Shown here in pieces: positions 51,041 to 55,320 of a stretch of DNA of 64,000 nt; the first letter of the stretch is position 1; the number at the start of each line of letters is the position of its first letter. Under the pieces are notes generated by a model. That model did not search any database. It was not told where the DNA came from and saw nothing but the letters and a program-made list of their open reading frames with translations. The position numbers and the translations under genes are program-made. This DNA comes from Apoderus coryli. Lineage: Eukaryota > Arthropoda > Insecta > Coleoptera > Attelabidae. The DNA lies in the NCBI GenBank assembly GCA_911728435.2, contig OU452209.1:13932869-13996868 (forward strand), in the 5' to 3' direction.

Positions 51041-51374
51041 CTGATCAGCGTCATTAGTGCGCAAATTTATATATACGGTCCTGGTTGATCGAAATATACA
51101 GTTTTAGTTGTGTGCTCTTACTAATTTTAAAATATCTGTTTTATATTAAGAAGTTAATTGGAGAATTTTTGTTGAGCTGTGTAATTTGTGATTTCGAACA
51201 GTTTTTATCCTGTTTTATTAAGTTGTACGTTTTGTCGTGTCTGATTCCGTGTTTTTTTTAATTGATTTATCAATAATATTTAATATTTCCAACAGAAATT
51301 CTATAAAAACGTTAATATATAGAATACAGAGTGTTAGTGACTGGTACCTACATTGAACAGTACCGTAGTAAGGA

Positions 51375-52262
51375 ATGATCATGGCGATTTCTGAAGATGT
51401 TTCGAATCGTGACATTTATAATTTGCTTAAGCAGGTACTTGAAAAAAGTAATGAGATTCAACGTGACCATTTGCAGTTGAGGCAGGATATTAAGGACGAG
51501 CTTGAATCAATACGGTCTGATGTGATTGATGGCATGAATGTTCTCCGTCAAGAATTTGTTGAGTTACAAGAACAAAATTGTAAGCTTCTAACCAGAGTCC
51601 AGCATATGGAAAGAAATTTGCGTAAGTACAACTTAATACTATATGGAATATCAGAAGATAATACGAGTGATGACCTTTCCAAAGTACTTAATACTTTTAA
51701 TAAAACTCTAAGTATAGCAAGCAGTACAAATGATTTTAGAGACATTCGTCGAATTGGAAAGGATGTAAGTTCTAAAAGGCATCGCCCAATCGTAGTGGAG
51801 TTTGTCAACTATCAGTTTCGCTCTAATATTCTTAAAAATGCTCACAAATTAAAAGGATCTGGTATATTTATTGCGAAAGACTATATCCCTGAGGATTACC
51901 AAAAGCAAAAGATATTACGAGAGCATTTAGGTAAAGCTAAAGAAAACGGCAGAACTGCCAGAATTAATAATAATACTTTGATTGTTGACGGTACTCGTTA
52001 CACACCTGAAGACCTACAAGGGTGTCAATTTGATTCAATTAAAACGATTGACACAATTGTTTCAAGCAAGAATACCGCGAGTCAAGTTGAAAGAAGTGAG
52101 TCAGTTCCTGAAGCGAGTTCTTATGCATCATGTTCTACAAATAATAAAATGTTTGGCGTTGCTGTTTCTAATGATAGAAAAAGAAAACAATTGTGTGAGT
52201 TAAATGATGTGTTTCCTAAACGCACCACAAGAAGTCAGTCACAGTCTGATCATTTAAACTGA
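51375..52262 (+). CDS. LINE ORF1 protein (coiled coil and RRM-like domain)
   Basis: The protein has 295 residues. ORF1 proteins of this class bind the element RNA and act as nucleic-acid chaperones. Residues about 10-85 are rich in charged and leucine residues at heptad-like spacing (IYNLLKQVLEKSNEIQRDHL and VLRQEFVELQEQNCKLLTRV), predicting a coiled coil. LRKYNLILYGISEDNTSDDL, RDIRRIGKDVSSKRHRPIVV and EFVNYQFRSNILKNAHKLKG follow the L1/CR1-type RRM-like domain. The segment ILREHLGKAKENGRTARINN and NNTLIVDGTRYTPEDL is the C-terminal domain. No CCHC knuckle is present. The basic end (KRKQLCELNDVFPKRTTRSQ) reads to the TGA at 52260. Two in-frame ATGs (51375, 51381) are possible starts, the second in the better context. 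The last two codons form part of a slippery heptamer. Confidence 0.85.
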   Translation: MIMAISEDVSNRDIYNLLKQVLEKSNEIQRDHLQLRQDIKDELESIRSDVIDGMNVLRQEFVELQEQNCKLLTRVQHMERNLRKYNLILYGISEDNTSDDLSKVLNTFNKTLSIASSTNDFRDIRRIGKDVSSKRHRPIVVEFVNYQFRSNILKNAHKLKGSGIFIAKDYIPEDYQKQKILREHLGKAKENGRTARINNNTLIVDGTRYTPEDLQGCQFDSIKTIDTIVSSKNTASQVERSESVPEASSYASCSTNNKMFGVAVSNDRKRKQLCELNDVFPKRTTRSQSQSDHLN

Positions 52263-55108
52263 GTTTGCCCAACAGTGAAGATATATTATTATACTATCAA
52301 AACGTTAGAGGACTTAGGACAAAAACTGAGCTATTTTATACGGGCGCTAGTCAGGCGGAATACGATATCGTTTCTTTAACGGAGACTTGGTTGCATGATG
52401 GTATTCGCAGCAGTGAGCTGTTTGGAGACGTTTACAATGTGTACAGAAAAGATCGTGAAACTGGCTTGCTTGGTTGTACCATGGGTGGGGGGGTATTATT
52501 AGCTATTAAGAGTTGTTTCACTTCAGTTCAAGTTAATACTGATTTTATTAGTGATAGTTTCCCTTTTATAGATGTTGTGGCATGTAAGTGTGAATTTGAT
52601 CATAAGAAAGTTTATATTTTTGTTATATACATACCACCTTCTGTGGATATAATTAATTTAGAACATTTTGTTAGTTTTTTGGATCAGATAGAATTTCTTC
52701 ATTCTAATAATGTTGTTTTGATTGGAGATTTCAATGTTCCCGGTTTCATATATCAAAACGCGACTGATAGGAAATCTTCTTTGATTACTGATTTTATAAA
52801 TTCTTTTAGCTTCAAGCAACATAATAATATTTTGAACTGCTCGAATAGATTACTGGATCTAGTAATCTCTGATATTACTTGTGGCGTATTCCACGAGGAC
52901 ATGTCTCTGGTGCCTGAAGATCCATATCATCCCGCACTCATGGTTGTTTTTCGTGGTTTTTGCTTTGTAAGGAACTTTAACATTAACAAAAGTAACAGAG
53001 CTTACAACTTTAAGCGTGCAGATTATGTGAATCTGTACGATTCTTTGTTGAATGCCGACTGGACATCAATGCGTGATTGTGATGATGTTAATTTGGCAGT
53101 TGAGAGTTTTTATGCTGTCATTTACGAAATTTTTGACACTTATGTACCTAGAAAAATACATTATAGCCATAAATATCCTTATTGGTATAGTTCTGATATA
53201 ATTAAAAATATTAAACAAAAGGCAAAACTTCTTAAAAGATATAAAAGAACTAATTGTCATGATCTGCTTCATGAGTTTAAGAGATTACGATCATTGATAA
53301 AGCAACAGATTAGAGATGCTTATTCCAATTATATTTCTAGTACTGAGTCGGCAATTAATAATGATAGCAGTAGGTTTTGGTCATATGTCCAATCAAAAAA
53401 TCAAACAACGAGGATACCGGGAGCAATGCGGTTTGAGGGTGCTGAATATACTAATTCGCAGGACATTGTCAATGCATTTTCACAGTTTTTCAGCGGTGTA
53501 TTTTCACAAAATGATGGTGCAGACTATGTTTGTGATGAAGCTGTTTTGAGTAACAACTTGAATATTTTGCTGCCCTTTGTTACAGAGGATGATATCCTGA
53601 AAGCGTCTAATAAGCTGAAAAATAAATTGACCTCTGGGATTGACAATATTCCTAGTTTCATTGTCCGCGATTGTGTTGGTGCTCTGACTGAACCTTTGAA
53701 GATGCTATTTAATTTAGCAATTAAAACAACCACTTATCCTGATTTTTGGAAAAGGGCAAAAATTTGTCCCGTTTTTAAGGGTAGCGATAAATCCGATATT
53801 GCTAATTATAGGCCTGTGTCAATTTTATGCAATTTTTCTAAATTATTCGAGATTATCCTTTATGACAGAATCTACCAGAGTGTTTCTAGTCAAATTTCTG
53901 TTTATCAACATGGCTTTATGAGAGGTCGTTCAACAATTTCTAATTTGGCTTTATTCACCCAGTATGTTTCCGAGATGCTTGATGATCGGGGCCAGGTGGA
54001 CGTAATATACACGGATTTTTCAAAAGCATTTGACCGTGTTAGCCATTCGATTCTTCTTACTAAATTGTCGACTTTTGGATTTTCCGACATATTGATCAAA
54101 TTCATTTGTTCATATCTGTATAATAGAAAACAGTTTGTTCACTATAATGGGTTTAGTTCTGTTGAGTATCATGCAGCATCTGGAGTTCCGCAAGGGTCTA
54201 ACTTAGGACCTTTGTTTTTCCTTCTATTTGTTAATGATATCGTAAATGTTATCACTTCACAGAAGTTGTTATTTGCCGATGACTTAAAAATATTCACCAA
54301 TGTTAGCAACTTGTCGGATTGTGTTAAGCTGCAGGGCGATTTGGATATGATTGCCGACTGGTGTGTAAATAATGATCTTCCCTTGAACGTTTCGAAATGT
54401 AAAGTTGTTACTTATACTCGTAAATCTGTATGCTATTTATACTCATATAAGATCAGAGAATATGAACTCTGTCGTACTGATCATTTGAAGGATTTGGGTA
54501 TTGTGTTTGATTCGCAGTTAACGTTTACTGAGCATATTGTAGCCAAGGTTGCAGAAGCCATGAAATCTTATGGTTTTGTAATAAGGAACTGCAGACATTT
54601 TGCGGACATTGACTGTGTTAAGGCACTCTATTTTGCTTACGTACGTTCAAAACTAGAATATGGTGGTTTGATTTGGTGTCCTTATTATAATTGGCAAAAT
54701 GCTTATGTAGAGAAAGTTCAAAGAAGGTTTCTTAAATATTTGGCATTTAAAACTGACGGTATATATCCCGCAAGAGGAACTGAGTATGAGCTACTTATAA
54801 ATAGATTTAAAATTGAATCCTTAGAACACCGTAGAATATATTCCGGCTTAGCATTTATGTATAAACTTTGTAACAATAAAATTGATTGTATAGAGCTGTT
54901 ATCACAAGTCGGATTTTGTGTTCCTCGTATTTCGAGTAGACAGGGTATAGTATTCAAGTGTCCAAGAGCTAGGACTAATTTGCTTTTGAAGTCTCCAATT
55001 AGCTTTATGTTAAGAAACTTTAATTTATTGTGCGGAATGTGTGACATACACTTTTCTTCATTGAATAGTTTACTGCAAAATGCAAAATGTGTAATGAGCA
55101 CACAGTAA
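52250..55108 (+). CDS. LINE ORF2: AP-type endonuclease and reverse transcriptase
   Basis: About 947 residues counted from a TTG at 52265. It nicks target DNA and copies the element RNA there (target-primed reverse transcription). Endonuclease, residues 1-225: YYQNVRG with Asn13, LTETWL with Glu40, GDFNVPG at 154-160 with Asp155 and Asn157, LDLVISD at 197-203, and the terminal His in PYHPAL at 222. Reverse transcriptase, about 490-740: YRPVSILCNFSKLFE, QHGFMRGRSTISNLA, DFSKAFDRVSH with Asp584, GVPQGSNLGPL, and FADD with Asp672-673. The C-terminal domain includes YAYVRSKLEY-type (FAYVRSKLEYGGLIWCPY) and ARTNLLLKSP blocks. There is no internal stop. The first in-frame Met is residue 73, after two catalytic residues, so initiation there would not give an active endonuclease. 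Frameshifting from ORF1, or a non-AUG start, is implied. Confidence 0.9.
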   Translation, partial: SFKLSLPNSEDILLYYQNVRGLRTKTELFYTGASQAEYDIVSLTETWLHDGIRSSELFGDVYNVYRKDRETGLLGCTMGGGVLLAIKSCFTSVQVNTDFISDSFPFIDVVACKCEFDHKKVYIFVIYIPPSVDIINLEHFVSFLDQIEFLHSNNVVLIGDFNVPGFIYQNATDRKSSLITDFINSFSFKQHNNILNCSNRLLDLVISDITCGVFHEDMSLVPEDPYHPALMVVFRGFCFVRNFNINKSNRAYNFKRADYVNLYDSLLNADWTSMRDCDDVNLAVESFYAVIYEIFDTYVPRKIHYSHKYPYWYSSDIIKNIKQKAKLLKRYKRTNCHDLLHEFKRLRSLIKQQIRDAYSNYISSTESAINNDSSRFWSYVQSKNQTTRIPGAMRFEGAEYTNSQDIVNAFSQFFSGVFSQNDGADYVCDEAVLSNNLNILLPFVTEDDILKASNKLKNKLTSGIDNIPSFIVRDCVGALTEPLKMLFNLAIKTTTYPDFWKRAKICPVFKGSDKSDIANYRPVSILCNFSKLFEIILYDRIYQSVSSQISVYQHGFMRGRSTISNLALFTQYVSEMLDDRGQVDVIYTDFSKAFDRVSHSILLTKLSTFGFSDILIKFICSYLYNRKQFVHYNGFSSVEYHAASGVPQGSNLGPLFFLLFVNDIVNVITSQKLLFADDLKIFTNVSNLSDCVKLQGDLDMIADWCVNNDLPLNVSKCKVVTYTRKSVCYLYSYKIREYELCRTDHLKDLGIVFDSQLTFTEHIVAKVAEAMKSYGFVIRNCRHFADIDCVKALYFAYVRSKLEYGGLIWCPYYNWQNAYVEKVQRRFLKYLAFKTDGIYPARGTEYELLINRFKIESLEHRRIYSGLAFMYKLCNNKIDCIELLSQVGFCVPRISSRQGIVFKCPRARTNLLLKSPISFMLRNFNLLCGMCDIHFSSLNSLLQNAKCVMSTQ
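52253..52259 (+). promoter_or_regulatory. Candidate -1 ribosomal frameshift site T_TTA_AAC
   Basis: In the ORF1 frame the codons read CAT TTA AAC TGA, so T_TTA_AAC fits the X_XXY_YYZ slippery pattern exactly and directly abuts the ORF1 stop. A one-base backward slip continues as CTG AGT TTG CCC into ORF2, whose frame is open from 52250. ORF2 has no ATG before its catalytic residues. No strong stem or pseudoknot is evident by eye in the next 90 bases. Confidence 0.55.
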
Positions 55109-55320
55109 TGTTTAGTGGTTCAGTATTTTGTTTGTTCTTATTTTTTTTTTATGTAGTATTCATGTAATTTAATCAATTTATCAGTTTTTTTGTGTATATT
55201 TCTAATCGTGCTATTTACAATAGTTGTTATATATTATGTATTGTTTGTTCTGGATTGTCCTGTAAATGGAATATCGTCTGTTGGGCAATGGAGCTATTAT
55301 TATTATTATTATTATTATTT

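What the first reader, a model, noticed from the sequence alone, without database searches (positions are those of the whole stretch)
52240..52330. Canonical -1 frameshift heptamer abutting the ORF1 stop of an intact LINE
Seen: ORF1 ends CAT TTA AAC TGA, giving T_TTA_AAC in phase. ORF2 is in the -1 frame, open from 52250, and has no ATG until residue 73, beyond the Asn and Glu of the endonuclease active site. Known: U_UUA_AAC is one of the most efficient -1 slippery sequences. LINEs more often use reinitiation or bicistronic translation. Inferred: ORF2 is made as an ORF1-ORF2 fusion by programmed frameshifting. AT-richness makes a chance heptamer less surprising, and I see no strong downstream stem, so this is a candidate.
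Basis: partly seen in the sequence, partly recalled or inferred. Interest (0 to 1): 0.75.

Follow-up and report, generated by a model that had tools for sequence, protein, structure and literature searches.

The report
Jumping gene that shifts reading frame
A LINE jumping gene carries a ribosome-slipping signal of the kind retroviruses and coronaviruses use, placed where it would join its two proteins, and 24 of 28 related families read in the same genome keep such a signal although much of their protein sequence has changed.

Summary
The window carries a full-length 4.25 kb LINE (51074 to about 55319) whose ORF1 ends T_TTA_AAC|TGA (heptamer 52253-52259). ORF2 is open in the -1 frame from 52250; its first ATG (52481) lies past the endonuclease Asn and Glu. 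In the same 428 Mb genome I read 28 related lineages (median 48% identity in an ORF2 N-terminal fragment). Of these, 24 keep a canonical in-phase heptamer (16 TTTAAAC, 7 AAAAAAC, 1 TTTAAAT); one has GGAAAAC; two have ORF2 in frame directly after UAG CAA; one has neither. In the ORF overlaps these three heptamers occur 24 times in phase and never out of phase. The ORF1 stop abuts the heptamer in 19 of 25 lineages, using all three stop codons. No downstream stem or pseudoknot is supported in the window family. A linear element (GYCYAACAG) 7-10 nt downstream is conserved in most lineages, more than its amino acids explain. Best reading: ORF2 is made as an ORF1-ORF2 fusion by -1 ribosomal frameshifting. 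No fusion protein has been shown. Direct heptamer evidence comes from one genome; support from other records is thin.

The parts
51074..55319 (+). full-length LINE (family A), 5' end uncertain by about 25 nt; ends in an (ATT)n tail
   Evidence: alignment with 10 other copies, 98.6-99.0% identity
51375..52262 (+). ORF1 (ATG 51375 or 51381, stop TGA 52260-52262); no PHD hit; part of it similar to the ORF1 of families B, D, F and G
52253..52259 (+). slippery heptamer T_TTA_AAC in ORF1 phase
   Evidence: conserved across lineages
52260..52262 (+). ORF1 stop codon abutting the heptamer
   Evidence: abutting in 19 of 25 lineages
52267..52276 (+). conserved linear element GCCCAACAGT (family-wide GYCYAACAG), candidate stimulator
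   Evidence: motif score 245.5 against 163.1 +- 6.4 with synonymous recoding and 143.3 +- 3.9 with shuffles
52250..55108 (+). ORF2 (endonuclease, reverse transcriptase) in the -1 frame; after a shift it is read from 52259
52301..52303 (+). endonuclease Asn codon (YQNVRG), upstream of any ORF2 ATG
52382..52384 (+). endonuclease Glu codon (LTETW), upstream of any ORF2 ATG
52481..52483 (+). first in-frame ATG of ORF2
53789..54433 (+). reverse transcriptase domain (PF00078)
   Evidence: E 4.2e-29

Best explanation
ORF2 of this LINE and of most of the related lineages read here is made as an ORF1-ORF2 fusion by programmed -1 ribosomal frameshifting. Most ribosomes read TTA AAC and stop, giving ORF1 protein. 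A minority slip back one base with Leu and Asn tRNAs on U_UUA_AAC, continue at CUG (52259) and make a fusion of about 1,240 residues carrying endonuclease and reverse transcriptase. Shown: the heptamer, its phase, the abutting stop, the -1 frame, the lack of a usable ATG in the window family, and the conservation of the first four. Inferred: that slippage happens, its efficiency, and that the abutting stop and the GYCYAACAG element, rather than a stem or pseudoknot, help it.
For: 1) 24 of 28 readable lineages have a canonical in-phase heptamer at the ORF1 end; by phase in the overlap 24/0/0, and in up to 180 nt of ORF1 upstream 1/3/0 over 4,374 positions. Counted by locus, 64 of 86 scanned loci have one. 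2) TTTAAAC and AAAAAAC interchange at about the same place after a G.P.IV-like motif near the ORF1 C-terminus, changing the amino acids but not the slipperiness; on a weak tree AAAAAAC needs 5 changes (4-6 in bootstraps), though well-supported branches force only one. 3) ORF2 is in the -1 frame in all 25 heptamer lineages. 4) 16 of 25 have no ATG between heptamer and endonuclease Asn, the window family included (A2). 5) ORF1s otherwise use TTA for 36 of 200 Leu and AAC for 48 of 151 Asn. 6) The stop abuts in 19 of 25 lineages: TGA 7, TAG 7, TAA 5. 7) The only two ORF1 homologues found in the protein database (species unstated) both end exactly in ...LN, as TTA AAC|stop would give.
Against: No fusion protein, reporter or ribosome-profiling data. 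No downstream stem stands out (z from -1.87 to +2.15 in 12 lineages) and a crude pseudoknot scan stands out only in lineage C2. Nine of 25 lineages have an in-frame ATG that could start ORF2, three overlapping the stop. Lineage D (3 copies, one with a full ORF1) has GGAAAAC, and L104 shows no heptamer. The lineages share ancestry and were chosen by me from search lists. All direct heptamer evidence for this clade comes from one genome.
Confidence: 0.88

Rival explanations
1. Termination-reinitiation at the stop, as in silkworm SART1 (UAAUG): ORF2 is a separate protein started at an AUG or near-cognate codon overlapping the ORF1 stop; in the window this would be the CUG that overlaps UGA.
For: Families B and H read heptamer|TAATG and Z reads heptamer|TGATG, with the ATG in the ORF2 frame. 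In A, A2, D, J, Q, V and Z the -1 codon over the stop is CTG. Reviews describe SART1 as coupled (passages seen). The abutting stop fits stop-start coupling.
Against: It does not explain why the heptamer is kept in phase in 24 of 25 lineages, nor the lineages whose stop lies 18 or 33 nt further on (C, C2, G, K, E, N), nor those where the overlapping codon is CTA or TTA without an adjacent ATG (F, L, O, P, U and others). 16 of 25 have no AUG before the endonuclease Asn (A2).
Confidence: 0.07
2. The heptamer is a chance match or an amino-acid constraint (...HLN at the ORF1 C-terminus) in an AT-rich element, and ORF2 is started by some other means.
For: Per-lineage chance of any canonical heptamer in the overlap is 0.5-8% in the 11 lineages tested, so a single case would not be remarkable.
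Against: Switches between LN and KN keep slipperiness, not residues. Phase counts 24/0/0. TTTAAAC/AAAAAAC elsewhere in phase: 1 in 9,992 slots.
Confidence: 0.03
3. ORF2 protein comes from a shorter transcript or internal entry downstream, with an inactive or missing endonuclease N-terminus.
For: The first ORF2 ATG is at 52481.
Against: It would lack the endonuclease Asn and Glu, which match human LINE-1 ORF2p and are read in the lineages compared.
Confidence: 0.02

Closest known systems
Retroviral and coronaviral -1 frameshift sites (U_UUA_AAC, A_AAA_AAC)
   Same: Same heptamers, in phase, joining an upstream protein to a downstream enzyme in the -1 frame (viral heptamers recalled, from no call).
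   Different: Here in a LINE; the 0-frame stop usually abuts the heptamer; no stem or pseudoknot found in the window family, but a conserved linear element 7-10 nt downstream.
SART1 UAAUG translational coupling (known to me from passages of reviews and recall; the original paper is not held)
   Same: ORF2 translation tied to the end of ORF1; families B and H have TAATG.
   Different: The window family has UGA and no AUG; the heptamer is conserved with and without an AUG.
HeT-A gag frameshift in Drosophila telomeric LINEs (section of PMC5009743 read)
   Same: A frameshift in expressing a LINE ORF.
   Different: HeT-A encodes no reverse transcriptase; the review describes the shift as needed for gag, not for an ORF1-ORF2 fusion.
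Jockey-superfamily (CR1/L2 lineage) LINEs with PHD + RRM + CTD ORF1 (one section and passages of PMC4120745)
   Same: Two ORFs, AP-type endonuclease plus reverse transcriptase; a PHD-like ORF1 in family F (Pfam PHD E 1.1e-4, just below its cut-off) and in B-E and G by similarity.
   Different: The word frameshift does not occur in that paper's main text; the window family's ORF1 has no PHD hit.

Membership tests
Programmed -1 frameshift cassette | X_XXY_YYZ heptamer in the upstream ORF's phase | tested here: met
   T_TTA_AAC at 52253-52259
Programmed -1 frameshift cassette | downstream ORF open in the -1 frame across the heptamer, without a usable start | tested here: met
   13-nt overlap; first ATG 52481
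Programmed -1 frameshift cassette | heptamer and phase conserved in diverged relatives | tested here: met
   24 of 28 readable lineages; phase 24/0/0; one genome only
Programmed -1 frameshift cassette | downstream stimulatory stem or pseudoknot at 5-9 nt | tested here: not met
   window family MFE z = -0.75, no pseudoknot by a crude scan; usual rather than strictly defining
Programmed -1 frameshift cassette | fusion product made | not testable with these tools
   no expression data
SART1-type UAAUG reinitiation | stop and start codons overlap as UAAUG | tested here: not met
   window family has AAC TGA GTT, no ATG until 52481; met in families B and H
Jockey-superfamily LINE (CR1/L2 lineage) | ORF2 with AP-like endonuclease and LINE reverse transcriptase, no RNase H | tested here: met
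   PF00078 E 4.2e-29, two endonuclease hits below Pfam cut-off, no other family at E 0.1; human LINE-1 ORF2p by profile, E 3.4e-32
Jockey-superfamily LINE (CR1/L2 lineage) | RT phylogeny with named reference elements | not tested
   no reference Repbase sequences available here

The most novel reading that the evidence does not exclude
A large clade of LINEs expresses ORF2 as a Gag-Pol-like recoded fusion, swapping between two strong -1 slippery heptamers and, where ORF1 is of another type, to UAG CAA readthrough; frameshifting is stimulated not by a pseudoknot but by an abutting stop codon plus a new linear element (GYCYAACAG) that binds a protein, ORF1p or rRNA. A UGA CUA junction in a distant LINE suggests that recoding is a wider LINE strategy.
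Probability: 0.35. Interest if true: 0.92.

Novelty: new variant of a known kind. Interest (0 to 1): 0.85.

Why it matters
How two-ORF LINEs make ORF2 protein is not settled: the reviews seen here name reinitiation-type mechanisms for SART1 and human LINE-1 (passages), and in the parts of a large recoding review that I saw, frameshifting among non-LTR elements is mentioned only for HeT-A gag, with TART's mechanism unknown and a novel initiation thought more likely for mammalian LINEs. A heptamer kept in phase across diverged families would show that LINEs, like retroviruses, can use recoding to set the ratio of structural protein to polymerase and to tether the enzyme to its RNA-binding partner. 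It also gives a ready set of natural variants (TTTAAAC, AAAAAAC, TTTAAAT, GGAAAAC, abutting or distant stop, UAG CAA) for testing, and may point to a stimulatory element that is not a stem or pseudoknot.

Tried and rejected
Stem or pseudoknot stimulator: folded 70 nt downstream in 12 lineages, z from -1.87 (H) to +2.15 (L), window family -0.75; in a home-made H-type pseudoknot scan (15 shuffles each) only C2 stood out. ORF1 homologues elsewhere: a profile search and a region search gave one protein each, so counting across species was not possible; their species are unstated. ORF2 homologues elsewhere: 480 proteins found, best 120 listed, 62 of the 120 with a Q[NS][VIAL]R[GS] motif within the first 120 residues, an upstream FK or KK compatible with the heptamer in 2 of 62 (P0022, P0029); many start too late to show it, and whether the initial M is ATG, GTG or TTG cannot be told. 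Viral-contig scans: no relative in two scans. Of the ten loci from the prokaryote-genome scan only L065-L068 reach the ORF2 N-terminus and were read. 18S rRNA complementarity of the downstream element: never tested, because the rRNA search did not complete.

Rows: the lists hold 48, 47, 50, 47 and 62 places; I fetched a part, aiming at one or a few per distinct ORF2 length, so the 28 lineages are neither a random nor a complete sample. A mechanical scan of 86 loci (L012-L064, L075-L106, window) finds an in-phase TTTAAAC/AAAAAAC/TTTAAAT in the overlap in 64, none in 16, and no ORF2 motif in 6. The 16: L028-L030 (D), L058, L059, L075, L076 (I), L079, L080 (M), L104, L025, L093, L102 (junction or ORF1 lost), L060, L063, L078 (broken sibling copies; L060, L063 and L078 still hold the heptamer letters). 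The 6: L012, L014, L015, L086, L090, L099; L090 reads as family R by another motif. In family I the same scan lists an in-phase TTTAAAA in a +1 open stretch that is not its CCHC-type ORF1. Lineage labels are mine, one representative each; near-identical siblings are not independent.
Full report
What is in the window. ORF1 (ATG 51375 or 51381) ends CAT TTA AAC TGA; the heptamer T_TTA_AAC is 52253-52259 and the stop 52260-52262. ORF2 is open in the -1 frame from 52250 to 55108, an overlap of 13 nt. Its first ATG is at 52481, after the endonuclease Asn (52301) and Glu (52382), which align with those of human LINE-1 ORF2p. The element runs from about 51074 to 55319 with an (ATT)n tail and has ten more full-length copies at 98.6-99.0%. 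Those ten all keep the junction but are too young to say much.

Relatives in the same genome. The genome G000 (428 Mb) holds many related LINE families. Protein searches with ORF2 and with homologues from other sources led to junction sequences of 28 lineages that could be read. I chose them from the search lists, so they are neither random nor complete. Within a fragment of up to 62 residues at the ORF2 N-terminus they have a median identity of 48%, the closest pair 76%. Twenty-four have a canonical heptamer in phase: 16 TTTAAAC, 7 AAAAAAC, 1 TTTAAAT. One (D) has GGAAAAC directly before TGA. Two (I, M) have ORF2 in the same frame right after TAG CAA TCA (3 of 4 copies of I; the fourth has a 1-nt deletion) or TAG CAA CAA (2 of 2 copies of M), with no ATG before the endonuclease Asn; their ORF1 looks CCHC-like (I: zf-CCHC E 0.076, below the cut-off; M by eye). 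One (L104) shows neither. By locus, 64 of 86 scanned have one of the three heptamers in phase in the overlap, 16 do not and 6 lack the ORF2 motif (listed in Tried and rejected).

Is it more than chance? In the overlaps of the 25 heptamer lineages, TTTAAAC, AAAAAAC or TTTAAAT is found 24 times in phase and not once in the other phases; canonical heptamers of any kind are found 25, 2 and 3 times. In up to 180 nt of ORF1 just upstream the phase counts of the three are 1, 3 and 0 over 4,374 positions. In eight representative elements TTTAAAC or AAAAAAC occurs in phase elsewhere once in 9,992 slots. ORF1s use AAC for 48 of 151 Asn and TTA for 36 of 200 Leu, so amino acids alone do not explain it. 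The site lies at about the same place in the protein, a few codons after a G.P.IV-like motif in the PHD-type ORF1s, and changes between LN and KN. On a tree of the N-terminal fragments, which is weakly supported, AAAAAAC needs five changes (4-6 in bootstraps), although the well-supported branches force only one. The stop abuts the heptamer in 19 of 25 lineages, with TGA 7, TAG 7, TAA 5; otherwise it is 18 nt (4) or 33 nt (2) further on. The naive chance of 19 of 25 is 7.5e-21, which ignores shared descent.

What stimulates it? No stem stands out in 70 nt downstream (12 lineages, z from -1.87 to +2.15; window family -0.75), and a crude pseudoknot scan stands out only in C2. But 7-10 nt after the heptamer there is a conserved linear element, GYCYAACAG (window: GCCCAACAGT, 52267-52276). 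A motif search over 24 lineages scored 245.5 against 143.3 +- 3.9, maximum 151.3, in 40 dinucleotide shuffles (these ran with fewer iterations than the real set). With equal iterations the real score is again 245.5, letter shuffles give 143.2 +- 3.1 (15 sets), and random synonymous codons that keep the ORF2 amino acids give 163.1 +- 6.4, maximum 180.5 (25 sets). So the letters are kept more than the protein requires; shared descent at synonymous sites is not controlled for. The element is clear in most TTTAAAC lineages, weak in E and H, absent or out of place in T, V and Y, and in G and N it lies in another codon phase. Where it codes for Asn the codon is AAC in 14 of 15 lineages, against 133 of 521 in ORF2 generally. 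Whether it binds a protein or rRNA was not tested.

Alternatives. Nine of 25 lineages have an in-frame ATG between the heptamer and the endonuclease Asn (8 of 24, plus A2), and in B, H and Z it overlaps the stop, as in SART1. In 16 of 25, the window family included, there is none. Reinitiation at the CUG overlapping UGA is possible in the window family, but hardly where that codon is CTA or TTA with no ATG beside it, or where the stop is 18-33 nt away. Frameshifting explains all 24 and perhaps D; reinitiation may add to it in some families.

Beyond this genome. The only two ORF1 homologues found in the protein database end exactly in ...LN (P0121, P0122); their species are unstated, so it is not shown that they come from another organism. 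In contigs filed as prokaryotic MAGs but carrying LINE-like genes (four of ten loci reach the junction), L067 has a PHD-finger ORF1 followed by TGA CTA G and ORF2 in frame, with no ATG for 92 codons. L065 and L068, which are closely similar, have ORF1-TGA CAA-ORF2 in one frame, but an in-frame ATG lies just before the endonuclease, so readthrough is not required. L066 has ORF2 in the -1 frame with TTTTTTA in phase 3 nt before the ORF1 stop, but also an ATG 21 codons into its ORF2. These are few, distant (27-28% identity) and unverified: they fit recoding, and only L067 seems to need it. That UAG CAR YYA and UGA CUA are known readthrough contexts is recalled, from no call.

Literature. In the passages and one section that I saw of the recoding review PMC5009743 (the library holds only part of its text), frameshifting among non-LTR elements is mentioned only for HeT-A gag. 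PMC2881922 and PMC5972666 (passages) describe coupling or reinitiation for SART1 and LINE-1. PMC4120745 on Jockey-superfamily ORF1 (one section and passages) has no occurrence of 'frameshift' in its main text. PMC7175516 and PMC1925062 (passages) do not bear on it. The searches listed no paper whose title or abstract start reports canonical -1 sites at LINE ORF junctions; most listed papers were not opened, long result lists were capped, the library lacks most subscription papers, and the SART1 paper is not held, so priority is not established.

Verdict. I rate it a new variant of a known kind: a known recoding mechanism, with known heptamers, used by many related LINEs, with an unusual abutting stop and a possible new stimulator.

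Noticed in passing
L058, L075, L076, L079, L080 (own genome): Two families with a CCHC-like ORF1 have ORF2 in frame directly after UAG CAA UCA or UAG CAA CAA, a possible stop-codon readthrough junction; they group together (96/94) among the frameshift families.
   Followed up: partly
L067:1088-1093: A distant LINE with a PHD-finger ORF1, in a contig filed as a prokaryotic MAG, has ORF1 and ORF2 in one frame separated by UGA CUA G, with no ATG for 92 codons.
   Followed up: partly
L065:353-358, L068:1230-1235: Two similar LINEs have ORF1 and ORF2 in one frame separated by UGA CAA; an ATG just before the endonuclease means readthrough is not required.
   Followed up: partly
L066:480-492: A LINE with an upstream ORF resembling an esterase (my reading; no domain search was run) has ORF2 in the -1 frame with U_UUU_UUA in phase 3 nt before the ORF1 stop; ORF2 also has an ATG 21 codons in.
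   Followed up: partly
window 52267-52276 and the same place in most lineages: Conserved linear element GYCYAACAG 7-10 nt after the slippery heptamer, kept more than its amino acids explain; role unknown.
   Followed up: partly
L016-L019, L055-L057, L105: Families B, H and Z combine the heptamer with a stop-start overlap (TAATG, TGATG), so they may use both frameshifting and reinitiation.
   Followed up: partly
L104: A related LINE whose upstream ORF is not in the +1 frame and has no heptamer; the ORF1 stop lies 40 nt before the ORF2 frame opens. Either decayed or a different mechanism.
   Followed up: no
L065-L070: Several prokaryotic MAG records contain LINE-like (eukaryotic-looking) contigs, i.e. 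likely contamination.
   Followed up: no
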